NCBI RefSeq assembly: GCF_030052815.1
Contig: NW_026614707.1
Span: forward strand, 206,098-270,097
Direction: 5' to 3'
Length of the DNA stretch: 64,000 nt
DNA from: Hevea brasiliensis
Taxonomy: Eukaryota; Streptophyta; Magnoliopsida; Malpighiales; Euphorbiaceae
The notes under the pieces were generated by a model. That model was not told the origin of the DNA. It ran no database searches and saw only the letters and a program-made list of their open reading frames with translations. Each line of letters begins with the position of its first letter. Position 1 is the stretch's first letter. This document shows, in pieces, positions 26,861 to 64,000 of the stretch. Both the position numbers and the translations under genes were made by a program.

Positions 26861-26861
26861 G

Positions 26862-30888: not shown

Positions 30889-31107
30889 AAGATTGCATGC
30901 AAATTCAATAAGTGGAATGCAATCTTCCCATGACTTCAAATTTTCCTTAACCACAGCACGCAAAAGAGTGGCTAGTGTCCTATTTACTACTTCAGTTTGA
31001 CCATCGGTTTGTGGGTGACAAGTGGTGGAAAATAACAACTTAGTGCCCAATTTTCCCCATAAAACCTTCCAAAAGTGACTGAGGAATTTAACATCCCTAT
31101 CACTAAC
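30669..31107. repeat. Near-perfect inverted repeat in integrase, 215-bp arms, 9-bp loop
   Basis: Left arm 30669-30883 and right arm 30893-31107 are reverse complements with only a few mismatches and no net length difference. The loop is TTGGGAAGA. The left arm is plus-strand integrase; the right arm is the same integrase segment on the minus strand. Orientation of the whole retroelement region flips here. Confidence 0.96.
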
Positions 31108-31209
31108 TCCATTGCACAAAACATTCATTCTTTCAAATTGTTGTCTGACAGCCTGCATGTAGAATGGATTTTCACTTTCCCCCTCACTACCATCACCCCT
31201 TCTAGACAT
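30868..31209 (-). pseudogene. Chimeric open frame: gag N-terminus fused to integrase core
   Basis: A 113-codon minus-strand frame starts [16 protein letters not shown], the family 1 gag start. After about 35 residues (CNGV) it continues in frame as integrase [12 protein letters not shown] ... [13 protein letters not shown] ... EFACN, ending in a few residues from the palindrome loop. The join at about 31108 occurs where both partners have a short GTTAGTGAT-like stretch, or by simple end joining. It lacks the first catalytic Asp and most of both proteins, so I infer no function. It lies directly downstream of a leader copy and thus could be transcribed from it. Confidence 0.88.
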
Positions 31210-32754: not shown

Positions 32755-32766
32755 GCTCTGATACCA
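32755..32766 (-). promoter_or_regulatory. Primer-binding site of unit 0
   Basis: The minus strand reads TGGTATCAGAGC, five bases inside the LTR end at 32772. Confidence 0.9.
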
Positions 32767-32771
32767 AAAAC

Positions 32772-34488: not shown

Positions 34489-34666
34489 ACAGCCAATTTA
34501 CTCACTAAAGGAGCAGAAACAATCTCTCATTAATATTCAAAGTGTGTCCTCCACTCTCTCATCACACTTGTATTTATAGCCTCTTGGCTTCAAAGTTAAA
34601 GACAAAAATATCCCTACTTTAGTAACAGCTGGTTATAACAGCAAAAAGTAAATTTAATACAGCAGC
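34489..34666 (-). mobile_element. Gypsy LTR scrap before array unit A
   Basis: It duplicates 33960-34127 and contains the LTR TATA region (GTATTTATAGCC on plus) and the rearranged outer end, then the GCAGC/protease joint at 34666. Confidence 0.85.
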
Positions 34667-35995
34667 ATCAATGATGACGCTACAAGCTTTGTCTTGGATA
34701 AGACACCTTGTATGGAAAATTGTTTCTCTGTGCAATTCATCACCAACGTCCTCCTTTAATTGAGTATTTAATGCTCTCATAATCAGTAGAGCACTTCCTT
34801 CAGCAGCATATTCCACCTCTGCATCCTCCTCCCCTGAAGATGTGGAATCACTAACAATTTCCTCCCCCGTTTCTATCTCACCATTTTCTCTCATGACCAT
34901 GACTCTCTTGTTAGGGCATTGAGAAGCTATGTGTCCACTGCCCAAACACCTAAAACACTTCACATCTCTATTTCGGGTAGTAGTTGCAACCTCCTTTCCC
35001 TTACTTCCTACAAATTTCTTCTCCACCTTTTATTCCTTTTCCTCATTTCTCTTATATTTGCTAACAGCATTTTCCCTATCCTCCTTCTTCCAATTAGACT
35101 TCCAAGATTAAGAAGTACCTGCATTTCCTCCAAATTTTGACTTGCTTTTAAGTTGCCTTTCTACCTTCATAGCCATGTGGACCATGTCCTCCAACTCAAC
35201 ATAGTGATGTAACTCAACAATATGAGCAATCTCCTTGTTTAGCCCATTCAAGAATCTAGCCATGGTGGCTTCTCTATCCTCCTCCACATTTGCTCTAATC
35301 ATAGCAATTTCCATTTCTTTATGATAATCTTCGACACATTTAGAACCTTGAGTCAATCTTTGTAACCTCTGATGTAGCTCTCTATAGTAATGGCTAGGAA
35401 CAAATCTCCTTCTCATCATAGACTTCATCTCACCCCAGGTTGCAATTGATTGCTCATAATTTCTCCTTCTACTAATCAACACTTGATCCCACCATACCAA
35501 AGCATAATCAGTAAATTCTACTACTGCTAACTTTACTTTCTTCTCCTCTGAATAGTGATGACAATCAAACACAGCTTCTACCTTCCTTTCCCATTCTAGA
35601 TACACATCCGGATCATTTTTCCCTTGGAAAGAAGGGATGCTCATTTTAATACTTTTGACATTGCCATCTACCCTATTCCTCTCTCTTTCCTCTCTTCTTA
35701 TCCTCCTATCCCTATTCCTCCTATCTTCAGCTCTTCTCTCATACCTACCCCTCCTAGGTCTTTCAACCTCAAAATCATAGTTATCAACCTCATCTTCATC
35801 AGATTCAACTACGGGAGGTACAAGATCCCTCCTATTTGGCCTTCTCTCATTTTGCCTATCTCTTTGCTCCAATCTTTCCAACCTATCTATGATTCCATTG
35901 CACACAACATTCATTCTTTCAAATTGTTGTCTGACAGCCTGCATGTAGAATGGATTTTCACTTTCCCCCTCACTACCATCACCCCTTCTAGACAT
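34667..35995 (-). pseudogene. gag: Gag of unit A
   Basis: The start MSRRG is at 35995; an upstream ATG at 36043 is in frame through one extra T and is probably irrelevant. The N-terminal and capsid parts are open to a TAA at about 35108 (a Ser codon TCA in the left element). A second TAA lies near 35030, and then the knuckle and protease stub are open to the joint at 34667. The residue before the joint is the catalytic Asp. One private change gives Gly in VDGNVKS. Confidence 0.9.
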
Positions 35996-37539
35996 GTTTT
36001 TCAGATCTGCAAGAAAATGGTTAGTGTAAAGAAAACACCTCACTCACTCCCTTACGTGTTTACACTCAACAGGGGACACTCCACTCGTGTTTAACTCAAC
36101 AAGGCTTTTCCCCTCTTATGAACTCACCACTCTGTGCCTTTTACCTCTCTTGGCTATGTCCACAAGTTCTTATCAAACTCAAGTAACTCAAACCAGGACT
36201 GTACTCACAAAAATTTAACATACAATAAAATTCTTGAACGAGATGGATCAAAACGAGTAATCAAGAAAGCAATAATGTGACACAAGAAGTCAAGAAAAGA
36301 AAAGCTCAAGCATGGAAATGTAATGCAATAAGCAATCAAGAAAGAAGACACCAAAATAAAAGAGTAATAAGCTGGAAAAGTGACAACCTAAAGAAGTGAT
36401 ATCAAGCTTAAATATCCAAGTTTGCCACCAACTTATCGCAATTACCAGCAGTTCACACAATACACCAAGAATTGCATAAATTTAGGATCACCAAGCAAAC
36501 GAGTGCATTTTGATCTGAAATTGAGTAGGCAAATGCCAACCCAATACTGACTAATTGCAGCTAGAATTTTAGGCTTTTCTTGAAAGACTTACTATGTAAA
36601 TCAAATGTAATCGTGTCTGCCGCGAAATTTTGGTTCCCCGCACAAACGATTAAATTTTCAGCTGAAATTTAATTTGAGAATAGCTCAAATGTGGCACAAA
36701 CAACCTGTAAATTTTCAGGTTCTGGGCTGATTTACTATGTGAACTTAATTTGATCGTGTCCGCCGCAAAATTTTGGTTCCCCGCACAAACGGATGAATTT
36801 TAAGCTGAAATTTAATTTGGGAACTACTGATATGGGGTATAAACACCCGGTAAATTTTCAGAAATTTCTGGGTATATTTGCTATGTGAACTTATTTTGAT
36901 CGATTCTGCCGCAAAAATTTTGGTTCCCCGCACAAACGGTTGAATTTTAAGCTGAAATTTAATTTGGGAACTACCGAGGTGGGGTATAAACACCCTGTAA
37001 ATTTTCAGGCATTTCTGGATCTATTTGCTATGTGAACTTAATTTGATCGCATCTGCCGCAAAATTTTGGTTCAGTGGGCAAACAGTATCGAACAACCCCC
37101 AAAATTTATACCCAACGTCTTAAACACACCCAAATAATGCTGGTAAATTTTCAGGCCTAATAGGTAAGTCGAACTCAATGACCCAAATAATCTCTCATGC
37201 TTGATATCAAAATGAAGGAAGCAAGATGGATAGCTAGAATAATGGCTTTGGCTTGATTAACCTAAAACCTTAAGACAAACTCAACAAAACAAATTTTTAA
37301 ACAAACAAGTCATACTAAACCCCAAGAGCCAATTTCGGTCAAGCATACAATGAACAAAAATGTGAATAACAGAAACACAATAAGAAGCAAAATAAGGTTT
37401 AGCAAGAAAGAACCAGATGCAAGATGAAGAAGAAGAAACAAATATGGAACTAAAGCCAAATAGCAAATATGAAAAAGGTAACAAAAAAAAAAAAGAATAA
37501 GAAGCAAATAGAGAATCTACCTTGTTTGGACGTCCCTTT

Positions 37540-37551
37540 GCTCTGATACCA
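37540..37551 (-). promoter_or_regulatory. Primer-binding site, unit A
   Basis: TGGTATCAGAGC on the minus strand, followed by AAAGGGACGTCC. The matching sites in the other units are at 40852-40863, 44163-44174, 47469-47480, 50780-50791, 54096-54107, 57427-57438 and 60720-60731, all unchanged. Confidence 0.92.
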
Positions 37552-37894
37552 AAAACTGATGTGAACCTTCAAGTAATTGGTAACTTGAAAACCCACATTC
37601 AAGAATTAAATGAACAATATGGAAAGCACCAAATCAAGATGTATGAATTTGAATCTTTGAACCAGCACAATCAGATTGTTGTGTAATTCAAAGAAAATAT
37701 CAGAAATGGGATTCTTGACCTAATTCATATGGAGAATGAATAAACTAAGAATATTATGCACATTAAACCTTGCAAGATAGAATCTCAGCAAGTTAATGAG
37801 CTTCACAAGAACAAAGGCAACAGCCAATTTACTCACTTTAGAAACAATCTCTCATTAATATTCAAAGTGTGTCCTCCACTCTCTCATCACACTT

Positions 37895-37907
37895 GTATTT
37901 ATTATAG
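37895..37907 (-). promoter_or_regulatory. TATA-like box in array LTR, unit A
   Basis: The minus strand reads CTATAATAAATAC, the LTR TATA site with three extra bases. The same altered form is in the LTRs near 41213, 44525, 47830, 51140 and 54455. The unaltered form is near 57783 and 61078. It would direct transcription toward the leader and gag of the same unit. Confidence 0.5.
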
Positions 37908-37993
37908 CCTCTTGGCTTCAAAGCTAAAGACAAAAATATCCCTACTTTAGTAACAGCTGGTTATAACAGCAAAAGTAAATTTAATACAGCAGC

Positions 37994-39318
37994 ATCAATG
38001 ATGACGCTACAAGCTTTGTCTTGGATAAGACACCTTGTATGGAAAATTGTTTCTCTGTGCAATTCATCACCAACGTCCTCCTTTAATTGAGTATTTAATG
38101 CTCTCATAATCACTAGAGCACTTCCTTCAGCAGCATATTCCACCTCTGCGTCCTCCTCCCCTGAAGATGTGGAATCACTAACAATTTCCTCCCCCGTTTC
38201 TATCTCACCATTTTCTCTCATGACCATGACTCTCTTGTTAGGGCATTGAGAAGCTAGCTATGTGTCCACTGCCCAAACACCTAAAACACTTCACATCTCT
38301 ATTTGGGTAGTAGTTGCAACCTCCTTTCCTTTACTTCCTACAAATTTCTTCTCCACCTTTTATTCCTTTTCCTCATTTCTCTTATATTTGCTAACAGCAT
38401 TTTCCTATCCTCCTTCTTCCAATTAGACTTCCAAGATTAAGAAGTACCTGCATTTCCTCCAAATTTTGACTTGCTTTTAAGTTGCCTTTCTACCTTCATA
38501 GCCATGTGGACCATATCCTCCAACTCAACATAGTGATGTAACTCAACAATATGAGCAATCTCCTTGTTTAGCCCATTCAAGAATCTAGCCATGGTGGCTT
38601 CTCTATCCTCCTCCACATTTGCTCTAATCATAGCAATTTCCATTTCTTTATGATAATCTTCAACACTTTTAGAACCTTGAGTCAATCTTTGTAACCTCTG
38701 ATGTAGCTCTCTATAGTAATGGCTAGGAACAAATCTCCTTCTCATCATAGACTTCATCTCACCCCAGGTTGCAATTGATTGCTCATAATTTCTCCTTCTA
38801 CTAATCAACACTTGATCCCACCATACCAAAGCATAATCAGTAAATTCTACTACTGCTAACTTTACTTTCTTCTCCTCTGAATAGTGATGACAATCAAACA
38901 CAGCTTCTACCTTCCTTTCCCATTCTAGATACACATCCGGATCATTTTCCCTTGGAAAGAAGGGATGCTCATTTTAATACTCTTGACATTGTCATCTACC
39001 CTATTCCTCTCTCTTTCCTCTCTTCTCATCCACCTATCCCTATTCCACCTATCTTCAGCTCTTCTCTCATACCTCACACTCCAAGGACTTTCAACCTCAA
39101 AATCATAGTTATCAACCTCATCTTCATCAGATTCAACTACGGGAGGTACAAGATCCCTCCTATTTGGCCTTCTCTCATTTTGCCTATCTCTTTGCTCCAA
39201 TCTTTCCAACCTATCTATGATTCCATTGCACACAACATTCATTCTTTCAAATTGTTGTCACAGCCTGCATCTAGAATTGATTTTCACTTTCCCCTCACTA
39301 CCATCACCCCTTCTAGAC
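37994..39318 (-). pseudogene. gag: Gag of unit B, additional frameshifts
   Basis: Besides the shared TAA codons it has a one-base loss near 38945 that splits the capsid part into two frames (38437-38934 and 38925-39242). It also has a one-base loss in the zinc-knuckle region (ATTTGGGTAG), the AGCT insertion next to it, and a damaged N-terminal segment around 39255. Several Arg codons became Trp in the charged region (DRWNRDRWMRREE). Confidence 0.88.
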
Positions 39319-41312
39319 ATGTTTTTCAGATCTGCAAGAAAATGGTTAGTGTAAAGAAAACACCTCACTCACACTCAACAGGGGACACTCCACTCGTGTT
39401 TAACTCAACAAGGCTTTTCCCTCTTATGAACTCACCACTCTGTGCCTTTTACCTCTCTTGGCTATGTCCACAAGTTCTTATCAAACTCAAGTAACTCAAA
39501 CCGGGACTGTACTCACAAAAATTTAACATACAATAAAATTCTTGAACGAGATGGATCAAAACGAGTAATCAAGAAAGCAATAATGTGACTCAAGAAATCA
39601 AGAAAAGAAAAGCTCAAGTATGGAAATGTAATGCAATAAGGAATCAAGAAAGAAGGCACCAAAATAAAAGAGTAATAAGCTGGAAAAGTGACAACCTAAA
39701 GAAGTGATATCAAGCGTAAATATCCAAGTTTGCCACCAACTTATCACAAATACCAGCAGTTCACACAATACACCAAGAATTGCATAAATTTAGGATCACC
39801 AAGCAAACGAGTGCATTTTGATCTGAAATTGAGTAGGCAAATGCAACCCAATACTGACCAATTGCTGCTAGAATTTTAGGCTATTCTTGACAGAATTACT
39901 ATGTAAATCAAATGTAATTGTGTCTGCCGCAAAATTGTGGTTCCCCACACAAACGATTAAATTTTGAGCTGAAATTTAATTTGAGAATAGCTCAAATGTG
40001 GCACAAAGAACCCGTAAATTTTTAGGAATTTCTGGGCTGATTTACTATGTGAACTTAATTTGATCGTGTCTGCCGCAAAATTTTGATTTCCCACACAAAC
40101 GATTAAATTTTGAGCTGAAATTTAATTTGAGAACTACTGATATGGGGTATAAACACTCGGTAAATTTTCAGAAATTTCTGAGTATATTTGCTATGTGAAC
40201 TTATTTTGATCGATTCTGCCGCAAAATTTTGGTTCCCCACACAAACGGTTGAATTTTTAGCTGAAATTTAATTTGGGAACTACCGAAGTGGGGTATAAAC
40301 ACCCTGTAAATTTTCAGGCATTTATGGGTCTATTTGCTATGTGAACTTAATTTGATCGGATCTGCCGCAAAATTTTCGTTCAGTGGGCAAACAGTATCGA
40401 ACAACCCCCAAAATTTATACCCAACGTCTTAAACACACCCAAATAATGCTGGTAAAGTTTCAGGCCTAATAGGTAAGTCGAACTCAATGACCCAAATAAT
40501 CTCTCATGCTTGATATCAAAATGAAGGAAGCAAGATGGATAGCTAGAATAATGGCTTTGGCTTGATTAACCTAAAACCTTAAGACAAACTCAACAAAACA
40601 AATTTTTAAACAAACAAGTCATACTAAACCCCAAGAGCCAATTTCGGTCAAGCATACAATGAACAAAAATGTGAATAACAGAAACACAATAAGAAGCAAA
40701 ATAAGGTTTAGCAAGAAAGAACCAGATGCAAGATGAAGAAGAAGAAACAAATATGGAACTAAAGCCAAATAGCAAATATGAAAAAGGTAACAAAAAAAAA
40801 AAAAAAGAATAAGAAGCAAATAGAGAATCTACCTTGTTTGGACGTCCCTTTGCTCTGATACCAAAAACTGATGTGAACCTTCAAGTAATTGGTAACTTGA
40901 AAACCCACATTCAAGAATTAAATGAACAATATGGAAAGCACCAAATCAAGATGTATGAATTTGAATCTTTGAACCAGCACAATCAGATTGTTGTGTAATT
41001 CAAAGAAAATATCAGAAATGGGATTCTTGACCTAATTCATATGGAGAATGAATAAACCAAGAATATTATGCACATTAAACCTTGCAAGATAGAATCTCAG
41101 CAAGTTAATGAGCTTCACAAGAACAAAGGCAACAGCCAATTTACTCACTAAAGGAGCAGAAACAATCTCTCATTAATATTCAAAGTGTGTCCTCCACTCT
41201 CTCATCACACTTGTATTTATTATAGCCTCTTGGCTTCAAAGCTAAAGACAAAAATATCCCTACTTTAGTAACAGCTGGTTATAACAGCAAAAAGTAAATT
41301 TAATACAGCAGC
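37994..41312 (-). repeat. Array unit B
   Basis: Leader about 39325-40851, primer site 40852-40863, LTR 40869-41312. The leader has the shortened CACTCACACTCAACAGG form shared with C, and several private changes (for example GATTTCCCACACAAACG near 40085). It is the most divergent unit. Confidence 0.9.
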
Positions 41313-42634
41313 ATCAATGATGACGCTACAAGCTTTGTCTTGGATAAGACACCTTGTATGGAAAATTGTTTCTCTGTGCAATTCATCACCAACGTCCTCC
41401 TTTAATTGAGTATTTAATGCTCTCATAATCACTAGAGCACTTCCTTCAGCAGCATATTCCACCTCTGCGTCCTCCTCCTGAAGATGTGGAATCACTAACA
41501 ATTTCCTCCCCCGTTTCTATCTCACCATTTTCTCTCATGACCATGACTCTCTTGTTAGGGCATTGAGAAGCTAGCTATGTGTCCACTGCCCAAACACCTA
41601 AAACACTTCACATCTCTATTTCGGGTAGTAGTTGCAACCTCCTTTCCTTTACTTCCTACAAATTTCTTCTCCACCTTTTATTCCTTTTCCTCATTTCTCT
41701 TATATTTGCTAACAGCATTTTCCCTATCCTCCTTCTTCCAATTAGACTTCCAAGATTAAGAAGTACCTGCATTTCCTCCAAATTTTGACTTGCTTTTAAG
41801 TTGCCTTTCTACCTTCATAGCCATGTGGACCATATCCTCCAACTCAACATAGTGATGTAACTCAACAATATGAGCAATCTCCTTGTTTAGCCCATTCAAG
41901 AATCTAGCCATGGTGGCTTCTCTATCCTCCTCCACATTTGCTCTAATCATAGCAATTTCCATTTCTTTATGATAATCTTCAACACTTTTAGAACCTTGAG
42001 TCAATCTTTGTAACCTCTGATGTAGCTCTCTATAGTAATGGCTAGGAACAAATCTCCTTCTCATCATAGACTTCATCTCACCCCAGGTTGCAATTGATTG
42101 CTCATAATTTCTCCTTCTACTAATCAACACTTGATCCCACCATACCAAAGCATAATCAGTAAATTCTACTACTGCTAACTTTACTTTCTTCTCCTCTGAA
42201 TAGTGATGACAATCAAACACAGCTTCTACCTTCCTTTCCCATTCTAGATACACATCCGGATCAATATTCCCTTGGAAAGAAGGGATGCTCATTTTAATAC
42301 TCTTGACATTGTCATCTACCCTATTCCTCTCTCTTTCCTCTCTTCTCATCCTCCTATCCCTATTCCTCCTATCTTCAGCTCTTCTCTCATACCTACCCCT
42401 CCTAGGTCTTTCAACCTCAAAATCATAGTTATCAACCTCATCTTCATCAGATTCAACTACGGGAGGTACAAGATCCCTCCTATTTGGCCTTCTCTCATTT
42501 TGCCTATCTCTTTGCTCCAATCTTTCCAACCTATCTATGATTCCATTGCACACAACATTCATTCTTGCACACAACCTATCTCTTTACTTGATTTTCACTT
42601 TCCCCCTCACTACCATCACCCCTTCTAGACATGT
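41313..42634 (-). pseudogene. gag: Gag of unit C, altered N-terminus
   Basis: The first gag codons are replaced by a stretch reading TTGCACACAACCTATC near 42565, so the frame begins at an internal [11 protein letters not shown] (42574). This stretch looks copied from the neighbouring CACACAAC and CCTATCTCTTTG tracts of gag itself. It has a two-base loss near 41475 and a private Ile (GNIDPD). Shared TAA at 41756. Confidence 0.88.
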
Positions 42635-44622
42635 TTTTCAGATCTGCAAGAAAATGGTTAGTGTAAAGAAAACACCTCACTCACACTCAACAGGGGACAC
42701 TCCACTCGTGTTTAACTCAACAAGGCTTTTCCCCTCTTATGAACTCACCACTCTGTGCCTTTTACCTCTCTTGGCTATGTCCACAAGTTCTTATCAAACT
42801 CAAGTAACTCAAACCGGGACTGTACTCACAAAAATTTAACATACAATAAAATTCTTGAACGAGATGGATCAAAACGAGTAATCAAGAAAGCAATAATGTG
42901 ACACAAGAAGTCAAGAAAAGAAAAGCTCAAGCATGGAAATGTAATGCAATAAGCAATCAAGAAAGAAGACACCAAAATAAAAGAGTAATAAGCTGGAAAA
43001 GTGACAACCTAAAGAAGTGATATCAAGCTTAAATATCCAAGTTTGCCACCAACTTATCGCAATTACCAGCAGTTCACACAATACACCAAGAATTGCACAA
43101 ATTTAGGATCGCCAAGCAAACGAGTGCATTTTGATCTGAAATTGAGTAGGCAAATGCAACCCAATACTGACTAATTGCAGCTAGAATTTTAGGCTTTTCC
43201 TGACAGACTTACTATGTAAATCAAATGTAATCGTGTCTGCCGTAAAATTTTGGTTTCCCACACAAACGATTAAATTTTGAGCTGAAATTTAATTTGAGAA
43301 TAGCTCAAATGTGGCACAAACAACCTGTAAATTTTCAGGATTTTCTGGGCTGATTTACTATGTGAACTTAATTTGATCGTGTCCGCCGAAAAATTTTGGT
43401 TCCCCACACAAACGGATGAATTTTAAACTGAAATTTAATTTGGAAACTACTGATATGGGGTATAAACACCCGGTAAATTTTCAGAAATTTCTGGGTATAT
43501 TTGCTATGTGAACTTATTTTGATCGATTCTGCCACAAAAATTTTGGTTCCCCGCACAAACGGTTGAATTTTAAGCTGAAATTTAATTTGGGAACTACCGA
43601 AGTGGGGTATAAACACCCTGTAAATTTTCAGGCATTTATGGGTCTATTTGCTATGTGAACTTAATTTGATCGGATCTGCCGCAAAATTTTGGTTCAGTAG
43701 GCAAACAATATTAAACAAACCCAAAATTTACACCCAATGTCTTAAACACACCCAAATAATGCTGGTAAAGTTTCAGGCCTAATAGGTAAGTCGAACTCAA
43801 TGACCCAAATAATCTCTCATGCTTGATATCAAAATGAAGGAAGCAAGATGGATAGCTAGAATAATGGCTTTGGCTTGATTAACCTAAAACCTTAAGACAA
43901 ACTCAACAAAACAAATTTTTAAACAAACAAGTCATACTAAACCCCAAGAGCCAATTTCGGTCAAGCATACAATGAACAAAAATGTGAATAACAGAAACAC
44001 AATAAGAAGCAAAATAAGGTTTAGCAAGAAAGAACCAGATGCAAGATGAAGAAGAAGAAACAAATATGGAACTAAAGCCAAATAGCAAATATGAAAAAGG
44101 TAACAAAAAAAAAAAAAGAATAAGAAGCAAATAGAGAATCTACCTTGTTTGGACGTCCCTTTGCTCTGATACCAAAAACTGATGTGAACCTTCAAGTAAT
44201 TGGTAACTTGAAAACCCACATTCAAGAATTAAATGAACAATATGGAAAGCACCAAATCAAGATGTATGAATTTGAATCTTTGAACCAGCACAATCAGATT
44301 GTTGTGTAATTCAAAGAAAATATCAGAAATGGGATTCTTGACCTAATTCATATGGAGAATGAATAAACCAAGAATATTATGCACATTAAACCTTGCAAGA
44401 TAGAATCTCAGCAAGTTAATGAGCTTCACAAGAACAAAGGCAACAGCCAATTTACTCACTAAAGGAGCAGAAACAATCTCTCATTAATATTCAAAGTGTG
44501 TCCTCCACTCTCTCATCACACTTGTATTTATTATAGCCTCTTGGCTTCAAAGCTAAAGACAAAAATATCCCTACTTTAGTAACAGCTGGTTATAACAGCA
44601 AAAGTAAATTTAATACAGCAGC
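41313..44622 (-). repeat. Array unit C
   Basis: Leader about 42636-44162, primer site 44163-44174, LTR 44180-44622. It has the CACTCACACTCAACAGG leader form like B, but the altered gag start like D and E. Confidence 0.92.
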
Positions 44623-45945
44623 ATCAATGATGACGCTACAAGCTTTGTCTTGGATAAGACACCTTGTATGGAAAATTGTTTCTCTGTGCAATTCATCACC
44701 AACGTCCTCCTTTAATTGAGTATTTAATGCTCTCATAATCACTAGAGCACTTCCTTCAGCAGCATATTCCACCTCTGCGTCCTCCTCCCCTGAAGATGTG
44801 GAATCACTAACAATTTCCTCCCCCGTTTCTATCTCACCATTTTCTCTCATGACCATGACTCTCTTGTTAGGGCATTGAGAAGCTAGCTATGTGTCCACTG
44901 CCCAAACACCTAAAACACTTCACATCTCTATTTCGGTAGTAGTTGCAACCTCCTTTCCTTTACTTCCTACAAATTTCTTCTCCACCTTTTATTCCTTTTC
45001 CTCATTTCTCTTATATTTGCTAACAGCATTTTCCCTATCCTCCTTCTTCCAATTAGACTTCCAAGATTAAGAAGTACCTGCATTTCCTCCAAATTTTGAC
45101 TTGCTTTTAAGTTGCCTTTCTACCTTCATAGCCATGTGGACCATATCCTCCAACTCAACATAGTGATGTAACTCAACAATATGAGCAATCTCCTTGTTTA
45201 GCCCATTCAAGAATCTAGCCATGGTGGCTTCTCTATCCTCCTCCACATTTGCTCTAATCATAGCAATTTCCATTTCTTTATGATAATCTTCAACACTTTT
45301 AGAACCTTGAGTCAATCTTTGTAACCTCTGATGTAGCTCTCTATAGTAATGGCTAGGAACAAATCTCCTTCTCATCATAGACTTCATCTCACCCCAGGTT
45401 GCAATTGATTGCTCATAATTTCTCCTTCTACTAATCAACACTTGATCCCACCATACCAAAGCATAATCAGTAAATTCTACTACTGCTAACTTTACTTTCT
45501 TCTCCTCTGAATAGTGATGACAATCAAACACAGCTTCTACCTTCCTTTCCCATTCTAGATACACATCCGGATCATTTTTCCCTTGGAAAGAAGGGATGCT
45601 CATTTTAATACTCTTGACATTGTCATCTACCCTATTCCTCTCTCTTTCCTCTCTTCTCATCCTCCTATCCCTATTCCTCCTATCTTCAGCTCTTCTCTCA
45701 TACCTACCCCTCCTAGGTCTTTCAACCTCAAAATCATAGTTATCAACCTCATCTTCATCAGATTCAACTACTGGAGGTACAAGATCCCTCCTATTTGGCC
45801 TTCTCTCATTTTGCCTATCTCTTTGCTCCAATCTTTCCAACCTATCTATGATTCCATTGCACACAACATTCATTCTTGCACACAACCTATCTCTTTACTT
45901 GATTTTCACTTTCCCCCTCACTACCATCACCCCTTCTAGACATGT
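44623..45945 (-). pseudogene. gag: Gag of unit D
   Basis: It has the same altered N-terminus as C and E (open from 45885), the shared stop at 45067, and a one-base loss near 44934 (ATTTCGGTAG) in the zinc-knuckle region. The capsid part is otherwise open. Confidence 0.88.
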
Positions 45946-52572: not shown

Positions 52573-54549
52573 GTTTTTCAGATCTGCAAGAAAATGGTTA
52601 GTGTAAAGAAAACACCTCACTCAACAGGGGACACTCCACTCGTGTTTAACTCAACAAGGCTTTTCCCCTCTTATGAACTCACCACTCTGTGCCTTTTACC
52701 TCTCTTGGCTATGTCCACAAGTTCTTATCAAACTCAAGTAACTCAAACCGGGACTGTACTCACAAAAATTTAACATACAATAAAATTCTTGAACGAGATG
52801 GATCAAAACGAGTAATCAAGAAAGCAATAATGTGACACAAGAAGTCAAGAAAAGAAAAGCTCAAGCATGGAAATGTAATGCAATAAGCAATCAAGAAAGA
52901 AGACACCAAAATAAAAGAGTAATAAGCTGGAAAAGTGACAACCTAAAGAAGTGATATCAAGCTTAAATATCCAAGTTTGCCACCAACTTATCGCAATTAC
53001 CAGCAGTTCACACAATACACCAAGAATTGCACAAATTTAGGATCGCCAAGCAAACGAGTGCATTTTGATCTGAAATTGAGTAGGCAAATGCAACCCAATA
53101 CTGACTAATTGCAGCTAGAATTTTAGGCTTTTCCTGACAGACTTACTATGTAAATCAAATGTAATCGTGTCTGCCGCGAAATTTTGGTTCCCACACAAAC
53201 GATTAAATTTTGAGCTGAAATTTAATTTGAGAAGAGCTCAAATGTGGCACAAACAACCTGTAAAATTTCAGGAGTGTCTGGGCTGATTTACGATGTGAAC
53301 TTAATTTGATCGTGTCCGCCGAAAATTTTGGTTCCCAAAAAATACGGATGAATTTTAAACTGAAATTTAATTTGGAAACTACTGATATGGGGTATAAACA
53401 CCCGGTAAATTTTCAGAAATTTCTGGGTATATTTGCTATGTGAACTTATTTTGATCGATTCTGCCACAAAAATTTTGGTTCCCCGCACAAACGGTTGAAT
53501 TTTAAGCTGAAATTTAATTTGGGAACTACCGAAGTGGGGTATAAACACCCTGTAAATTTTCAGGCATTTATGGGTCTATTTGCTATGTGAACTTAATTTG
53601 ATCGGATCTGCCGCAAAATTTTCGTTCAGTGGGCAAACAGTATCGAACAACCCCCAAAATTTATACCCAACGTCTTAAACACACCCAAATAATGCTGGTA
53701 AAGTTTCAGGCCTAATAGGTAAGTCGAACTCAATGACCCAAATAATCTCTCATGCTTGATATCAAAATGAAGGAAGCAAGATGGATAGCTAGAATAATGG
53801 CTTTGGCTTGATTAACCTAAAACCTTAAGACAAACTCAACAAAACAAATTTTTAAACAAACAAGTCATACTAAACCCCAAGAGCCAATTTCGGTCAAGCA
53901 TACAATGAACAAAAATGTGAATAACAGAAACACAATAAGAAGCAAAATAAGGTTTAGCAAGAAAGAACCAGATGCAAGATGAAGAAGAAGAAACAAATAT
54001 GGAACTAAAGCCAAATAGCAAATATGAAAAAGGTAACAAAAAAAAAAAAAGAATAAGAAGCAAATAGAGAATCTACCTTGTTTGGACGTCCCTTTGCTCT
54101 GATACCAAAAACTGATGTGAACCTTCAAGTAATTGGTAACTTGAAAACCCACATTCAAGAATTAAATGAACAATATGGAAAGCACCAAATCAAGATGTAT
54201 GAATTTGAATCTTTGAACCAGCACAATCAGATTGTTGTGTAATTCAAAGAAAATATCAGAAATGGGATTCTTGACCTAATTCATATGGAGAATGAATAAA
54301 CCAAGAATATTATGCACATTAAACCTTGCAAGATAGAATCTCAGCAAGTTAATGAGCTTCACAAGAACAAAGGCAACAGCCAATTTACTCACTTTAGAAA
54401 CAATCTCTCATTAATATTCAAAGTGTGTCCTCCACTCTCTCATCACACTTGTATTTATTATAGCCTCTTGGCTTCAAAGCTAAAGACAAAAATATCCCTA
54501 CTTTAGTAACAGCTGGTTATAACAGCAAAAAGTAAATTTAATACAGCAG
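51240..54549 (-). repeat. Array unit F
   Basis: Primer site 54096-54107, LTR 54113-54549. The leader is of D/E type with private changes near 53270-53345. The LTR lacks AGGAGCAG (ACTTTAGAAAC), like A, G and H, but keeps the three-base TATA insertion. Confidence 0.92.
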
Positions 54550-55883
54550 CATCAATGATGACGCTACAAGCTTTGTCTTGGATAAGACACCTTGTATGGA
54601 AAATTGTTTCTCTGTGCAATTCATCACCAACGTCCTCCTTTAATTGAGTATTTAATGCTCTCATAATCACTAGAGCACTTCCTTCAGCAGCATATTCCAC
54701 CTCTGCGTCCTCCTCCCCTGAAGATGTGGAATCACTAACAATTTCCTCCCCCGTTTCTATCTCACCATTTTCTCTCATGACCATGACTCTCTTGTTAGGG
54801 CATTGAGAAGCTAGCTATGTGTCCACTGCCCAAACACCTAAAACACTTCACATCTCTATTTCGGGTAGTAGTTGCAACCTCCTTTCCTTTACTTCCTACA
54901 AATTTCTTCTCCACCTTTTATTCCTTTTCCTCATTTCTCTTATATTTGCTAACAGCATTTTCCCTATCCTCCTTCTTCCAATTAGACTTCCAAGATTAAG
55001 AAGTACCTGCATTTCCTCCAAATTTTGACTTGCTTTTAAGTTGCCTTTCTACCTTCATAGCCATGTGGACCATATCCTCCAACTCAACATAGTGATGTAA
55101 CTCAACAATATGAGCAATCTCCTTGTTTAGCCCATTCAAGAATCTAGCCATGGTGGCTTCTCTATCCTCCTCCACATTTGCTCTAATCATAGCAATTTCC
55201 ATTTCTTTATGATAATCTTCAACACATTTAGAACCTTGAGTCAATCTTTGTAACCTCTGATGTAGCTCTCTATAGTAATGGCTAGGAACAAATCTCCTTC
55301 TCATCATAGACTTCATCTCACCCCAGGTTGCAATTGATTGCTCATAATTTCTCCTTCTACTAATCAACACTTGATCCCACCATACCAAAGCATAATCAGT
55401 AAATTCTACTACTGCTAACTTTACTTTCTTCTCCTCTGAATAGTGATGACAATCAAACACAGCTTCTACCTTCCTTTCCCATTCTAGATACACATCCGGA
55501 TCATTTTTCCCTTGGAAAGAAGGGATGCTCATTTTAATACTTTTGACATTGTCATCTACCCTATTCCTCTCTCTTTCCTCTCTTCTTATCCTCCTATCCC
55601 TATTCCTCCTATCTTCAGCTCTTCTCTCATACCTACCCCTCCTAGGTCTTTCAACCTCAAAATCATAGTTATCAACCTCATCTTCATCAGATTCAACTAC
55701 GGGAGGTACAAGATCCCTCCTATTTGGCCTTCTCTCATTTTGCCTATCTCTTTGCTCCAATCTTTCCAACCTATCTATGATTCCATTGCACACAACATTC
55801 ATTCTTTCAAATTGTTGTCTGACAGCCTGCATGTAGAATGGATTTTCACTTTCCCCCTCACTACCATCACCCCTTCTAGACAT
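54550..55883 (-). pseudogene. gag: Gag of unit G
   Basis: The full MSRRG start is open to the shared TAA at 54996. The capsid carries GSKCVEDYH (Cys instead of Ser), a variant shared with A, H and I but not B-F. Confidence 0.89.
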
Positions 55884-57877
55884 GTTTTTCAGATCTGCAA
55901 GAAAATGGTTAGTGTAAAGAAAACACCTCACTCACTACCTTACGTGTTTACACTCAACAGGGACACTCCACTCGTGTTTAACTCAACAAGGCTTTTCCCC
56001 TCTTATGAACTCACCACTCTGTGCCTTTTACCTCTCTTGGCTATGTCCACAAGTTCTTATCAAACTCAAGTAACTCAAACCAGGACTGTACTCACAAAAA
56101 TTTAACATACAATAAAATTCTTGAACGAGATGGATCAAAACGAGTAATCAAGAAAGCAATAATGTGACACAAGAAGTCAAGAAAAGAAAAGCTCAAGCAT
56201 GGAAATGTAATGCAATAAGCAATCAAGAAAGAAGACACCAAAATAAAAGAGTAATAAGCTGGAAAAGTGACAACCTAAAGAAGTGATATCAAGCTTAAAT
56301 ATCCAAGTTTGCCACCAACTTATCGCAATTACCAGCAGTTCACACAATACACCAAGAATTGCATAAATTTAGGATCACCAAGCAAACGAGTGCATTTTGA
56401 TCTGAAATTGAGTAGGCAAATGCCAACCCAATACTGACTAATTGCAGCTAGAATTTTAGGCTTTTCTTGAAAGACTATACTATGTAAATCAAATGTAATC
56501 GTGTCTGCATGAAATTTTGGTTCCCGCACAAACGATTAAATTTTCAGCTGAAATTTAATTTGAGAATAGCTCAAATGTGGCACAAACAACCTGTAAATTT
56601 TCAGGATTTTCTGGGCTGATTTACTATGTGAACTTAATTTGATCGTGTCCGCCGAAAATTTTGGTTCCCCACAAACGGATGAATTTTAAGCTGAAATTTA
56701 ATTTGGGAACTACTGATATGGGGTATAAACACCCGGTAAATTTTCAGAAATTTCTGGGTATATTTGCTATGTGAACTTATTTTGATCGATTCTGCCGCAA
56801 AAATTTTGGTTCCCCGCACAAACGGTTGAATTTTAAGCTGAAATTTAATTTGGGAACTACCGAGGTGGGGTATAAACACCCTGTAAATTTTCAGGCATTT
56901 CTGGATCTATTTGCTATGTGAACTTAATTTGATCGGATCTGCCGCAAAATTTTGGTTCAGTGGGCAAACAGTATCGAACAACCCACAAAATTTATACCCA
57001 ACGTCTTAAACACACCCAAATAATGCTGGTAAATTTTCAGGCCTAATAGGTAAGTCGAACTCAATGACCCAAATAATCTCTCATGCTTGATATCAAAATG
57101 AAGGAAGCAAGATGGATAGCTAGAATAATGGCTTTGGCTTGATTAACCTAAAACCTTAAGACAAACTCAACAAAACAAATTTTTAAACAAACAAGTCATA
57201 CTAAACCCCAAGAGCCAATTTCGGTCAAGCATACAATGAACAAAAATGTGAATAACAGAAACACAATAAGAAGCAAAATAAGGTTTAGCAAGAAAGAACC
57301 AGATGCAAGATGAAGAAGAAGAAACAAATATGGAACTAAAGCCAAATAGCAAATATGAAAAAGGTAACAAAAAAAAAAAAAGAATAAGAAGCAAATAGAG
57401 AATCTACCTTGTTTGGACGTCCCTTTGCTCTGATACCAAAAACTGATGTGAACCTTCAAGTAATTGGTAACTTGAAAACCCACATTCAAGAATTAAATGA
57501 ACAATATGGAAAGCACCAAATCAAGATGTATGAATTTGAATCTTTGAACCAGCACAATCAGATTGTTGTGTAATTCAAAGAAAATATCAGAAATGGGATT
57601 CTTGACCTAATTCATATGGAGAATGAATAAACCAAGAATATTATGCACATTAAACCTTGCAAGATAGAATCTCAGCAAGTTAATGAGCTTCACAAGAACA
57701 AAGGCAACAGCCAATTTACTCACTTTAGAAACAATCTCTCATTAATATTCAAAGTGTGTCCTCCACTCTCTCATCACACTTGTATTTATAGCCTCTTGGC
57801 TTCAAAGCTAAAGACAAAAATATCCCTACTTTAGTAACAGCTGGTTATAACAGCAAAAAGTAAATTTAATACAGCAG
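54550..57877 (-). repeat. Array unit G (hybrid)
   Basis: The gag/protease end is of B-F type (AGCT insertion near 54812). The gag start and leader are of A/H/I type (full tract, AATGCCAACCC). Primer site 57427-57438, LTR 57444-57877 with the unaltered TATA spacing. It fits a crossover within gag. Confidence 0.92.
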
Positions 57878-59207
57878 CATCAATGATGACGCTACAAGCT
57901 TTGTCTTGGATAAGACACCTTGTATGGAAAATTGTTTCTCTGTGCAATTCATCACCAACGTCCTCCTTTAATTGAGTATTTAATGCTCTCATAATCACTA
58001 GAGCACTTCCTTCAGCAGCATATTCCACCTCTGCGTCCTCCTCCCCTGAAGATGTGGAATCACTAACAATTTCCTCCCCCGTTTCTATCTCACCATTTTC
58101 TCTCATGACCATGACTCTCTTGTTAGGGCATTGAGAAGCTATGTGTCCACTGCCCAAACACCTAAAACACTTCACATCTCTATTTCGGGTAGTAGTTGCA
58201 ACCTCCTTTCCTTTACTTCCTACAAATTTCTTCTCCACCTTTTATTCCTTTTCCTCATTTCTCTTATATTTGCTAACAGCATTTTCCCTATCCTCCTTCT
58301 TCCAATTAGACTTCCAAGATTAAGAAGTACCTGCATTTCCTCCAAATTTTGACTTGCTTTTAAGTTGCCTTTCTACCTTCATAGCCATGTGGACCATGTC
58401 CTCCAACTCAACATAGTGATGTAACTCAACAATATGAGCAATCTCCTTGTTTAGCCCATTCAAGAATCTAGCCATGGTGGCTTCTCTATCCTCCTCCACA
58501 TTTGCTCTAATCATAGCAATTTCCATTTCTTTATGATAATCTTCAACACATTTAGAACCTTGAGTCAATCTTTGTAACCTCTGATGTAGCTCTCTATAGT
58601 AATGGCTAGGAACAAATCTCCTTCTCATCATAGACTTCATCTCACCCCAGGTTGCAATTGATTGCTCATAATTTCTCCTTCTACTAATCAACACTTGATC
58701 CCACCATACCAAAGCATAATCAGTAAATTCTACTACTGCTAACTTTACTTTCTTCTCCTCTGAATAGTGATGACAATCAAACACAGCTTCTACCTTCCTT
58801 TCCCATTCTAGATACACATCCGGATCATTTTTCCCTTGGAAAGAAGGGATGCTCATTTTAATACTTTTGACATTGTCATCTACCCTATTCCTCTCTCTTT
58901 CCTCTCTTCTTATCCTCCTATCCCTATTCCTCCTATCTTCAGCTCTTCTCTCATACCTACCCCTCCTAGGTCTTTCAACCTCAAAATCATAGTTATCAAC
59001 CTCATCTTCATCAGATTCAACTACGGGAGGTACAAGATCCCTCCTATTTGGCCTTCTCTCATTTTGCCTATCTCTTTGCTCCAATCTTTCCAACCTATCT
59101 ATGATTCCATTGCACACAACATTCATTCTTTCAAATTGTTGTCTGACAGCCTGCATGTAGAATGGATTTTCACTTTCCCCCTCACTACCATCACCCCTTC
59201 TAGACAT
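57878..59207 (-). pseudogene. gag: Gag of unit H
   Basis: Full MSRRG start, shared stops at 58320 and about 58240. Knuckle and protease stub are open 57831-58238 with no AGCT insertion, as in A and I. Confidence 0.89.
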
Positions 59208-61170
59208 GTTTTTCAGATCTGCAAGAAAATGGTTAGTGTAAAGAAAACACCTCACTCACTCCCTTACGTGTTTACACTCAACAGGGGACACTCCACTCGT
59301 GTTTAACTCAACAAGGCTTTTCCCCTCTTATGAACTCACCACTCTGTGCCTTTTACCTCTCTTGGCTATGTCCACAAGTTCTTATCAAACTCAAGTAACT
59401 CAATACAATAAAATTTTTGAACGAGATGGATCAAAACGAGTAATCAAGAAAGCAATAATGTGACACAAGAAGTCAAGAAAAGAAAAGCTCAAGCATGGAA
59501 ATGTAATGCAATAAGCAATCAAGAAAGAAGACACCAAAATAAAAGAGTAATAAGCTGGAAAAGTGACAACCTAAAGAAGTGATATCAAGCTTAAATATCC
59601 AAGTTTGCCACCAACTTATCGCAATTACCAGCAGTTCACACAATACACCAAGAATTGCATAAATTTAGGATCACCAAGCAAACGAGTGCATTTTGATCTG
59701 AAATTGAGTAGGCAAATGCCAACCCAATACTGACTAATTGCAGCTAGAATTTTAGGCTTTTCTTGAAAGACTATACTATGTAAATCAAATGTAATCGTGT
59801 CTGCCGCGAAATTTTGGTTCCCCGCACAAACGATTAAATTTTCAGCTGAAATTTAATTTGAGAATAGCTCAAATGTGGCACAAACAACCTGTAAATTTTC
59901 AGGTTCTGGGCTGATTTACTATGTGAACTTAATTTGATCGTGTCCGCCGCAAAATTTTGGTTCCCGCACAAACGGATGAATTTTAAGCTGAAATTTAATT
60001 TGGGAACTACTGATATGGGGTATAAACACCCGGTAAATTTTCAGAAATTTCTGGGTATATTTGCTATGTGAACTTATTTTGATCGATTCTGCCGCAAAAA
60101 TTTTGGTTCCCCGCACAAACGGTTGAATTTTAAGCTGAAATTTAATTTGGGAACTACCGAGGTGGGGTATAAACACCCTGTAAATTTTCAGGCATTTCTG
60201 GATCTATTTGCTATGTGAACTTAATTTGATCGGATCTGCCGCAAAATTTTGGTTCAGTGGGCAAACAGTATCGAACAACCCACAAAATTTATACCCAACG
60301 TCTTAAACACACCCAAATAATGCTGGTAAATTTTCAGGCCTAATAGGTAAGTCGAACTCAATGACCCAAATAATCTCTCATGCTTGATATCAAAATGAAG
60401 GAAGCAAGATGGATAGCTAGAATAATGGCTTTGGCTTGATTAACCTAAAACCTTAAGACAAACTCAACAAAACAAATTTTTAAACAAACAAGTCATACTA
60501 AACCCCAAGAGCCAATTTCGGTCAAGCATACAATGAACAAAAATGTGAATAACAGAAACACAATAAGAAGCAAAATAAGGTTTAGCAAGAAAGAACCAGA
60601 TGCAAGATGAAGAAGAAGAAACAAATATGGAACTAGAGCCAAACAGCAAATATGAAAAAGGTAACAAACAAAAAGAATAAGAAGCAAATAGAGAATCTAC
60701 CTTGTTTGGACGTCCCTTTGCTCTGATACCAAAAACTGATGTGAACCTTCAAGTAATTGGTAACTTGAAAACCCACATTCAAGAATTAAATGAACAATAT
60801 GGAAAGCACCAAATCAAGATGTATGAATTTGAATCTTTGAACCAGCACAATCAGATTGTTGTGTAATTCAAAGAAAATATCAGAAATGGGATTCTTGACC
60901 TAATTCATATGGAGAATGAATAAACCAAGAATATTATGCACATTAAACCTTGCAAGATAGAATCTCAGCAAGTTAATGAGCTTCACAAGAACAAAGGCAA
61001 CAGCCAATTTACTCACTTTAGAAACAATCTCTCATTAATATTCAAAGTGTGTCCTCCACTCTCTCATCACACTTGTATTTATAGCCTCTTGGCTTCAAAG
61101 CTAAAGACAAAAATATCCCTACTTTAGTAACAGCTGGTTATAACAGCAAAAAGTAAATTTAATACAGCAG
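57878..61170 (-). repeat. Array unit H
   Basis: Primer site 60720-60731, LTR 60737-61170. It is the shortest unit (about 3293 bp) because about 30 bp of leader near 59402 are missing (AACTCAATACAAT). Confidence 0.92.
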
Positions 61171-62500
61171 CATCAATGATGACGCTACAAGCTTTGTCTT
61201 GGATAAGACACCTTGTATGGAAAATTGTTTCTCTGTGCAATTCATCACCAACGTCCTCCTTTAATTGAGTATTTAATGCTCTCATAATCACTAGAGCACT
61301 TCCTTCAGCAGCATATTCCACCTCTGCGTCCTCCTCCCCTGAAGATGTGGAATCACTAACAATTTCCTCCCCCGTTTCTATCTCACCATTTTCTCTCATG
61401 ACCATGACTCTCTTGTTAGGGCATTGAGAAGCTATGTGTCCACTGCCCAAACACCTAAAACACTTCACATCTCTATTTCGGGTAGTAGTTGCAACCTCCT
61501 TTCCTTTACTTCCTACAAATTTCTTCTCCACCTTTTATTCCTTTTCCTCATTTCTCTTATATTTGCTAACAGCATTTTCCCTATCCTCCTTCTTCCAATT
61601 AGACTTCCAAGATTAAGAAGTACCTGCATTTCCTCCAAATTTTGACTTGCTTTTAAGTTGCCTTTCTACCTTCATAGCCATGTGGACCATGTCCTCCAAC
61701 TCAACATAGTGATGTAACTCAACAATATGAGCAATCTCCTTGTTTAGCCCATTCAAGAATCTAGCCATGGTGGCTTCTCTATCCTCCTCCACATTTGCTC
61801 TAATCATAGCAATTTCCATTTCTTTATGATAATCTTCAACACATTTAGAACCTTGAGTCAATCTTTGTAACCTCTGATGTAGCTCTCTATAGTAATGGCT
61901 AGGAACAAATCTCCTTCTCATCATAGACTTCATCTCACCCCAGGTTGCAATTGATTGCTCATAATTTCTCCTTCTACTAATCAACACTTGATCCCACCAT
62001 ACCAAAGCATAATCAGTAAATTCTACTACTGCTAACTTTACTTTCTTCTCCTCTGAATAGTGATGACAATCAAACACAGCTTCTACCTTCCTTTCCCATT
62101 CTAGATACACATCCGGATCATTTTTCCCTTGGAAAGAAGGGATGCTCATTTTAATACTTTTGACATTGTCATCTACCCTATTCCTCTCTCTTTCCTCTCT
62201 TCTTATCCTCCTATCCCCATTCCTCCTATCTTCAGCTCTTCTCTCATACCTACCCCTCCTAGGTCTTTCAACCTCAAAATCATAGTTATCAACCTCATCT
62301 TCATCAGATTCAACTACGGGAGGTACAAGATCCCTCCTATTTGGCCTTCTCTCATTTTGCCTATCTCTTTGCTCCAATCTTTCCAACCTATCTATGATTC
62401 CATTGCACACAACATTCATTCTTTCAAATTGTTGTCTGACAGCCTGCATGTAGAATGGATTTTCACCTTCCCCCTCACTACCATCACCCCTTCTAGACAT
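61171..62500 (-). pseudogene. gag: Gag of unit I, most like the left element
   Basis: It shares with the left element (17334-18440) the GEGENP start, NGDRRI in the charged region and the shorter TTTTCAGACCTGC before the ATG, yet has both array-specific TAA codons. Open 61613-62500 and 61124-61531. Confidence 0.9.
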
Positions 62501-64000
62501 GTTTTCAGACCTGCAAGAAAATGGTTAGTGTAAAGAAAACACCTCACTCACTCCCTTACGTGTTTACACTCAACAGGGGACACTCCACTCGTGTTTAACT
62601 CAACAAGGCTTTTCCCCTCTTATGAACTCACCACTCTGTGCCTTTTACCTCTCTTGGCTATGTCCACAAGTTCTTATCAAACTCAAGTAACTCAAACCAG
62701 GACTGTACTCACAAAAATTTAACATACAATAAAATTCTTGAACGAGATGGATCAAAACGAGTAATCAAGAAAGCAATAATGTGACACAAGAAGTCAAGAA
62801 AAGAAAAGCTCAAGCATGGAAATGTAATGCAATAAGCAATCAAGAAAGAAGACACCAAAATAAAAGAGTAATAAGCTGGAAAAGTGACAACCTAAAGAAG
62901 TGATATCAAGCTTAAATATCCAAGTTTGCCACCAACTTATCGCAATTACCAGCAGTTCACACAATACACCAAGAATTGCATAAATTTAGGATCACCAAGC
63001 AAACGAGTGCATTTTGATCTGAAATTGAGTAGGCAAATGCCAACCCAATACTGACTAATTGCAGCTAGAATTTTAGGCTTTTCTTGAAAGACTATACTAT
63101 GTAAATCAAATGTAATCGTGTCTGCCGCGAAATTTTGGTTCCCCGCACAAACGATTAAATTTTCAGCTGAAATTTAATTTGAGAATAGCTCAAATGTGGC
63201 ACAAACAACCTGTAAATTTTCAGGTTCTGGGCTGATTTACTATGTGAACTTAATTTGATCGTGTCCGCCGCAAAATTTTGGTTCCCCGCACAAACGGATG
63301 AATTTTAAGCTGAAATTTAATTTGGGAACTACTGATATGGGGTATAAACACCCGGTAAATTTTCAGAAATTTCTGGGTATATTTGCTATGTGAACTTATT
63401 TTGATCGATTCTGCCGCAAAAATTTTGGTTCCCCGCACAAACGGTTGAATTTTAAGCTGAAATTTAATTTGGGAACTACCGAGGTGGGGTATAAACACCC
63501 TGTAAATTTTCAGGCATTTCTGGATCTATTTGCTATGTGAACTTAATTTGATCGGATCTGCCGCAAAATTTTGGTTCAGTGGGCAAACAGTATCGAACAA
63601 CCCACAAAATTTATACCCAACGTCTTAAACACACCCAAATAATGCTGGTAAATTTTCAGGCCTAATAGGTAAGTCGAACTCAATGACCCAAATAATCTCT
63701 CATGCTTGATATCAAAATGAAGGAAGCAAGATGGATAGCTAGAATAATGGCTTTGGCTTGATTAACCTAAAACCTTAAGACAAACTCAACAAAACAAATT
63801 TTTAAACAAACAAGTCATACTAAACCCCAAGAGCCAATTTCGGTCAAGCATACAATGAACAAAAATGTGAATAACAGAAACACAATAAGAAGCAAAATAA
63901 GGTTTAGCAAGAAAGAACCAGATGCAAGATGAAGAAGAAGAAACAAATATGGAACGAGAGCCAAATAGCAAATATGAAAAAGGTAACAAAAAAAAAAAAA
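61171..64000 (-). repeat. Array unit I, cut by window end
   Basis: Gag/protease stub 61171-62500, then leader to the window end inside its poly-A tract (about 63987-64000); primer site and LTR lie beyond. The array therefore continues to the right. Confidence 0.92.

What the first reader, a model, noticed from the sequence alone, without database searches (positions are those of the whole stretch)
34667..64000. Retrotransposon fragment turned into a 3.3-kb tandem satellite
At least nine consecutive head-to-tail copies of partial LTR - primer site - leader - dead gag - protease stub, with an identical LTR/protease joint in every copy. Ordinary LTR-LTR recombination gives arrays with full LTRs and full interiors; here both are cut. 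The array therefore grew from one aberrant joint by DNA-level duplication.
Basis: seen in the sequence. Interest (0 to 1): 0.82.

Follow-up and report, generated by a model that had tools for sequence, protein, structure and literature searches.

The report
Retrotransposon-derived 3.3-kb satellite array
A broken piece of a jumping gene in a plant genome was copied head to tail at one place, giving a young satellite array; the process is already known from maize and potato, but here its starting accident can still be read in the DNA.

Summary
The window has 10 copies of one LTR/protease joint: 8 complete units of 3,293-3,328 bp, a ninth cut by the window end, and truncated copies to the left. 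The window lies in a 480-kb contig of an unnamed 1.88-Gb assembly, probably Hevea or a relative. There the array spans about 71 kb with 16 joints. The joint (up to 2 mismatches) and a nearby 11-bp LTR patch (24-mer, up to 1 mismatch) were each found 16 times genome-wide, all in this array; withheld stretches cannot be seen. All 14 units keeping the site share one gag stop. This means one founder, DNA-level amplification and later exchange between units. One premise is too strong: an internal deletion followed by ordinary LTR-LTR exchange would also give cut LTRs and cut interiors. The array lies among copies of its own Ty3/gypsy family, between stretches of a 688-bp AT-rich satellite. It works like maize CRM1TR/CRM4TR but includes gag and a protease stub. 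It is a new member of a known kind, moderately interesting.

The parts
34662..37988 (-). unit 1, variant A (3,327 bp)
   Evidence: joint to joint
37989..41307 (-). unit 2, variant C, mosaic (3,319 bp)
41308..44617 (-). unit 3, variant B (3,310 bp)
44618..47924 (-). unit 4, variant B (3,307 bp)
47925..51235 (-). unit 5, variant B (3,311 bp), used as reference
51236..54545 (-). unit 6, variant B with A-like tracts
54546..57873 (-). unit 7, B-like to about unit position 529, then mostly A-like (B-like again at 2029-2031 and 2811): recombinant
57874..61166 (-). unit 8, variant A (3,293 bp)
61167..64000 (-). unit 9, variant A, cut by the window end
   Evidence: continues in contig C141
34123..34661 (-). 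539-bp array remnant with its own joint: unit positions 1-193 and 3135-3311 round a 172-bp stretch that holds a 112-bp repeat also seen at 25338-25449
31096..34122 (-). copy 0: edge copy from unit position 1225 to the joint, with a 910-bp insertion at 33032-33941
47907..47968 (-). joint, identical in 10 of 10 window copies over 62 bp; LTR ..AATACAGCAGC meets protease ATCAATGATG.. at 47929/47930
47927..48193 (-). end of gag and protease stub in unit 5, ending at the Asp of the presumed protease active site (IIDGG in uncut copies; motif reading recalled)
48378..49202 (-). gag remnant in unit 5, ending at the shared stop
49822..50308 (-). leader repeats of 146-147 bp in unit 5
50780..50791 (-). 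primer binding site TGGTATCAGAGC in unit 5 (motif recalled as a tRNA-Met primer site)
50797..51240 (-). cut LTR of unit 5 (about 444 bp; the full LTR is about 812 bp), TATA-like box at 51142-51153
17067..21663 (-). E1: non-array copy of the same family with full LTR and uncut protease start, used as outgroup; holds an 835-bp insertion at 19179-20013
26097..30888 (+). X: second non-array copy in opposite orientation, gag to integrase

Best explanation
A single copy of a Ty3/gypsy retrotransposon, probably in a satellite-rich region, underwent one error-prone DNA repair event that joined its U3 (about 330 bp inside the LTR) to its protease gene. The event used 2 bp of microhomology and left an 11-bp patch copied from nearby LTR sequence. 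This created a 3.3-kb direct repeat. Unequal exchange and gene conversion between the repeats then expanded it to at least 14 units (12 uninterrupted, 2 carrying insertions) and partly homogenised them, while the edges stayed more diverged. The founding joint was most likely a tandem duplication of the U3-to-protease segment, or else an internal protease-to-U3 deletion of one element followed by LTR-LTR exchange (the first rival below is that sub-case, with its own odds). Shown: one joint, one patch, one gag stop, one locus, mosaic units. Inferred: the repair pathway, the order of steps and the amplification process.
For: Joint 32-mer with up to 2 mismatches: 16 hits in 1.88 Gb, all exact, all in this array, 0 for the reversed control. 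LTR patch 24-mer with up to 1 mismatch: 16 hits (14 exact, 2 with one mismatch), one beside each of the 16 joints, control 0 (letters). Patch plus flanks is a 14-mer found in U3, 54 bp beyond the point where the LTR resumes, in 2 of the 3 full LTRs compared, and 10 bases of it in the third; the 14-mer arose in 0 of 20,000 simulated LTRs and the bare 11-mer in 0.04%. Gag stop in 14 of 14 units that keep the site; four non-array copies looked at lack it at that codon (X has a different stop nearby). Recombinant units; 163 of 780 site pairs show all four combinations among 12 complete units. A units differ by 0.2-0.8% from each other; the edge copies differ from them by about 2-2.5%. No purine tract at the joint in 3 of 3 units checked.
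Against: Neither array edge shows the founder's intact end: the left edge is fused to integrase and a palindrome, and the right edge stops at unit position 2555 against the AT-rich satellite, so duplication and deletion cannot be told apart. E324, a full-LTR copy about 16 kb beyond the array's right edge, without patch or gag stop and with no joint hit, groups with the A units (98.4-98.9%) rather than outside the whole array, which a clean single-founder tree does not predict; gene conversion could explain it. In one search, with E1 and E2 as the only non-array rows, the 10 array rows were split off with 100/99 support, but E324 was not in that tree. Two lesions 24 bp apart could be two events. 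The genome counts leave out withheld stretches (10 kb next to the window reads N), and the tool calls its counts lower bounds.
Confidence: 0.85

Rival explanations
1. Deletion first (a sub-case of the best explanation): one element lost protease-to-U3 internally (LTR-leader-gag-protease~cut LTR) and ordinary unequal LTR-LTR exchange then multiplied the cut unit, as proposed for CRM1TR/CRM4TR.
For: It gives exactly these units with one end-joining event; it follows the published model for the nearest known case (PMC3648361 Discussion). Deletion derivatives of the same family lie next door (LTR-gag and gag-integrase joins).
Against: After the last cut LTR one would expect the element's end and target site; instead copy 0 goes on into primer site, leader, gag and then integrase. 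The left edge is rearranged, so this is weak.
Confidence: 0.35
2. Circle: a 3.3-kb extrachromosomal circle closed by the same joint was amplified by rolling circle and reinserted.
For: The same joint is predicted; circles were found for all satellites examined in ten plant species (abstract of PMC2543021).
Against: Nothing in the sequence needs it. The units fall into diverged A, B and C groups rather than one flush of identical copies; later exchange could have made these.
Confidence: 0.12
3. Units are serial insertions of a non-autonomous retroelement.
For: Primer site, leader and a TATA-like box are kept: the box in 16 of 16 cut LTRs.
Against: Units abut at one fixed joint, there is no purine tract at the joint in 3 of 3 units checked, and the joint was found at one locus only.
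Confidence: 0.02
4. Assembly artefact that expanded a single copy or a short array.
For: No reads were available, and the array lies in a 480-kb contig, not in one of the long ones.
Against: Units differ by substitutions and indels; two units hold different insertions; the flanks are joined in the contig.
Confidence: 0.04

Closest known systems
CRM1TR and CRM4TR of maize (PMC3648361; read: abstract, Results part 1 of 2, section on transcription, Discussion)
   Same: Tandem arrays wholly derived from one Ty3/gypsy element, monomer crossing the LTR-leader junction and starting inside the LTR, internal leader repeats (CRM1TR), few loci, exchange between units and local homogenisation, later retroelement insertions.
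   Different: CRM1TR monomers average 696 and 819 nt and both repeats stop in the UTR; these are 3.3 kb and run through gag into protease. Here 2 bp of microhomology and a templated patch can be read, whereas the authors report no short direct repeats that would explain the maize joint in one step.
Sobo (4.7 kb) and the retrotransposon-related centromeric repeats of potato (seen only as cited in PMC3648361 Discussion and in passages of PMC9659126; the two primary papers are not held)
   Same: Long monomers related to LTR retrotransposons.
   Different: Described in those passages as related to LTRs; not compared in sequence here.
Lathyrus satellites from Ogre 3' UTR repeats (PMC7004042; abstract and passages)
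   Same: Satellite born from a retrotransposon; expansion mostly in primary constrictions.
   Different: There short repeats already inside the element expand; here the 146-bp leader repeats stay at about three copies and the whole LTR-to-protease block is the unit.
Rye E3900 and the wheat gag/CAA repeat (only as cited in PMC3648361 and PMC9659126)
   Same: gag-derived sequence inside a tandem repeat.
   Different: Those passages do not mention LTR, primer site, leader and protease together.

Membership tests
Retrotransposon-derived satellite of the CRM1TR/CRM4TR kind | head-to-tail monomers wholly derived from one LTR element | tested here: met
Retrotransposon-derived satellite of the CRM1TR/CRM4TR kind | monomer spans the LTR-leader junction with the LTR's 5' side cut | tested here: met
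Retrotransposon-derived satellite of the CRM1TR/CRM4TR kind | monomer ends in the untranslated leader | tested here: not met
   it ends in protease; so it works like these but is not the same repeat type
Retrotransposon-derived satellite of the CRM1TR/CRM4TR kind | confined to one or few loci, exchange between monomers | tested here: met
Retrotransposon-derived satellite of the CRM1TR/CRM4TR kind | centromeric or pericentromeric site | tested here: inconclusive
   lies between stretches of a 688-bp AT-rich satellite; no CENH3 data
Retrotransposon-derived satellite of the CRM1TR/CRM4TR kind | transcribed from a TATA box in the monomer (CRM4TR only) | not testable with these tools
   TATA-like box in 16 of 16 cut LTRs; no RNA data
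Ty3/gypsy LTR retrotransposon (parent) | order gag-protease-RT-RNase H-integrase, TG..CA LTRs, 5-bp target duplication | tested here: met
   Pfam gag in E1 and, in copy X, RT, RNase H and integrase in this order; protease had no Pfam hit and is placed by position and an IIDGG motif; solo LTR with TGAAT duplication
CRM clade (centromeric retrotransposon) | CR-type chromodomain at the integrase end; clade position | not tested
   copy X stops inside integrase at the palindrome; clade resemblance is only recalled

The most novel reading that the evidence does not exclude
A satellite caught near birth: a one-locus, one-founder array growing inside an older AT-rich (possibly centromeric) satellite, each monomer still carrying a core promoter, primer site and leader, so that the array makes its own polyadenylated RNA and takes part in setting the chromatin of the locus.
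Probability: 0.15. Interest if true: 0.6.

Novelty: new member of a known kind. Interest (0 to 1): 0.42.

Why it matters
How satellites begin is usually erased by homogenisation. Here the founding joint, its microhomology, a templated patch, outgroup element copies and variant groups all survive at one locus, so the birth of a retrotransposon satellite can be dated and its steps compared. The kind of event is known, so the gain is a clear case rather than a new principle.

Tried and rejected
Considered and rejected: serial insertion of a non-autonomous element (one fixed joint, one locus); chance (32-mer in 16 copies, reversed control 0); expansion of the 146-bp leader repeats (2.0-3.3 copies in every array found by TRF). 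ARAGORN found nothing in the window, nor did Rfam at its gathering scores. The joint-spanning reading frame found 28 proteins; none of the 147 proteins held carries four joint-spanning or neighbouring words looked for. Clade assignment to CRM was not attempted in sequence. Genome-wide searches for the gag stop and for the 688-bp satellite were sent several times and never answered, so whether they occur elsewhere in the genome is not known from a search. Papers: no title in the listings names this array, nor do the passages of the Hevea genome paper PMC12512020 seen; one search found no paper holding all its terms. Most subscription papers are not held.
Full report
Observation. Distances between successive joints are 539 bp and then 3,293-3,328 bp. 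Mapping one unit back on the window shows 8 complete head-to-tail copies (34662-61166), a ninth cut by the window end, a 539-bp remnant, and an edge copy reaching down to 31096. Substitution identity between the nine units is 97.7-99.7%, with indels.

Anatomy. Read on the minus strand, a unit is: the 3' part of an LTR (about 444 of about 812 bp, with a CTATAAATA or CTATAATAAATA box), a 12-bp primer site TGGTATCAGAGC after a 5-bp spacer in the reference unit, a leader with about three 146-147-bp repeats, a gag remnant and a protease stub that ends at the Asp of the presumed active site. The LTR length comes from a solo LTR of the same family at 28517-29328 with TGAAT target duplications, inside the reverse-transcriptase region of another copy. 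Pfam supports Retrotrans_gag in E1, and RVT_1, RNase H and integrase core in copy X; the protease had no Pfam hit. Among the 120 gag relatives listed, the closest by identity is from Hevea brasiliensis, 95% over 61% of the query; the best E-value belongs to a Melia azedarach protein at 62%. That the genome is Hevea or a near relative is inferred from this.

The joint. Uncut copies show LTR ..AATACAGCAGCAAATAAGG.. (or CAAGTAAGG) and protease ..CTTCCCCCATCAATGATG... The array has ..AATACAGCAGCATCAATGATG.., which leaves CA as shared bases at the break. Starting 24 bp from the joint, an LTR segment with inverted-repeat ends (57 bp in the 2 of 3 full LTRs where both flanks match exactly) is replaced by GTTATAACAGC. 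With its flanks this makes a 14-mer that occurs in U3 54 bp beyond the point where the LTR resumes, in 2 of 3 full LTRs compared, and 10 bases of it in the third; it arose in 0 of 20,000 Markov-simulated LTRs, and the bare 11-mer in 0.04%. A patch copied from nearby next to a microhomology joint is what end joining by polymerase theta or template switching is known to leave (recalled knowledge; the pathway itself is inferred).

One founder. In the 1.88-Gb assembly that holds the window (contig C141:206098-270097), the joint 32-mer with up to 2 mismatches has 16 hits, all exact, all between C141:240206 and 296905, with 0 for the reversed control. The patch with up to 1 mismatch has 16 hits, one beside each joint, control 0. 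In the stretch read (window plus C141:270098-380097), 14 of 14 units that keep the site carry the same gag stop, while E1, X, E324 and the copy at C141:317-320 kb do not have it at that codon (X has a different stop nearby). Joint, patch and stop thus mark one founder. The genome-wide count for the stop could not be obtained, and withheld stretches are not covered by any of these counts.

Extent and age. From copy 0 (C141:237193) to the right edge (C141:307954) the array covers about 71 kb: 12 uninterrupted complete units, two units broken by insertions (one of them also missing unit positions 133-1965), one remnant and two edge pieces. The right edge piece is itself split by an insertion of about 8.5 kb. 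One insertion (C141:280466-287927) has repeated ends that differ at 3 of 432 bases; in the right one, two pairs of repeats differ at 1 of 151 and 5 of 399. With a rate of 1.3e-8 per site per year (recalled, for grasses) the first would be about 0.3 million years old, so the array is at least roughly that old; this is rough, and the left repeat may be truncated.

Growth. Units fall into A (unit 1, and units 7-9 and onward outside the window), B (units 3-6) and C (unit 2). Unit 7 is B-like up to about position 529 and mostly A-like after it; units 2 and 6 are mosaics. Among 12 complete units 163 of 780 pairs of informative sites show all four combinations, and mean divergence rises from 0.79% between neighbours in the list to about 1.4-1.5% at separations of five to nine. 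The single pair eleven apart differs by only 0.51%, because both are A. Edge copies differ from the A units by about 2-2.5%. This is the pattern of unequal exchange and conversion with less homogenised edges. Against a simple tree, E324, a full-LTR copy about 16 kb beyond the right edge without patch or stop and with no joint hit, groups with the A units at 98.4-98.9%. I read this as conversion or as A being closest to the ancestral state, but it is not resolved.

Setting. The window's first 17,066 bases are 25 monomers of about 688 bp; the reference monomer has 22% GC and the others are 84-94% like it. The same satellite lies to the right in the opposite orientation at C141:307953-309232 and again from 355,670 on (read: 330098-380097 and three further 10-kb samples, each 98-100% satellite by summed alignment length). 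Between lie the array, many copies of the same retrotransposon family and some other elements. An island rich in one family within a long satellite looks like a centromere or its flank, but no CENH3 data exist here, so that is inference. The 10 kb left of the window reads N and was left alone.

Which first step. A tandem duplication of the U3-to-protease block, an internal deletion followed by LTR-LTR exchange, and a circle all give this joint. Copy 0 goes on from its cut LTR into primer site, leader, gag and, in frame, integrase, which leans slightly to a duplication inside an element, but the edge is rearranged by a palindrome. The right edge is cut at unit position 2555 by satellite.

Known or new. 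Maize CRM1TR and CRM4TR are the closest I found (PMC3648361; abstract, Results part 1, transcription section and Discussion read). Three CRM4TR cDNAs start 18, 40 and 43 nt below a TATA box in the monomer, a precedent for transcription here, where 16 of 16 cut LTRs keep such a box. Differences are the length, the coding part and the legible joint. The kind is known, so this is a new member.

Noticed in passing
1-17066 (and C141:355670-480097 in the samples read): AT-rich satellite of about 688-bp monomers, 22% GC, 25 monomers in the window; to the right of the retrotransposon island it runs in the opposite orientation.
   Followed up: partly
30668-31108: Palindrome with integrase arms of about 221 bp, 94.8% alike; on the minus strand the gag start is fused in frame to integrase (ORF 31233-30868).
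   Followed up: partly
28517-29328: Solo LTR of the array's own family (812 bp, TGAAT target duplications) inside the reverse-transcriptase region of copy X.
   Followed up: yes
33032-33941 and 19179-20013: Two solo-LTR-like insertions (910 and 835 bp, both starting TGATGAG and ending in CA) with CAAAG and GCTGA target duplications; the second shares its end sequence with the element inserted at C141:280466-287927.
   Followed up: partly
25338-25449, 25621-25733, 34316-34427: A repeat of about 112 bp; the copies near 25.3-25.7 kb lie beside TGGTATCAGAGC primer sites (25584, 25736), like a small non-autonomous LTR element (TRIM-like, name recalled).
   Followed up: no
L009:3947-7984 (C141:274044-278081): Insertion in an array unit with a long open frame that has pararetrovirus-like pieces (CCHC knuckle, Peptidase_A3 below its cut-off, RVT_1). 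Described only.
   Followed up: partly
C141:323423-328378 (L014): E324, a full-LTR family copy close to the array's A units yet without patch or gag stop and with no joint hit; its place in the tree is unexplained.
   Followed up: partly
C141:309692-355670 (L012-L018): Many further copies and fragments of the same family, in both orientations.
   Followed up: no
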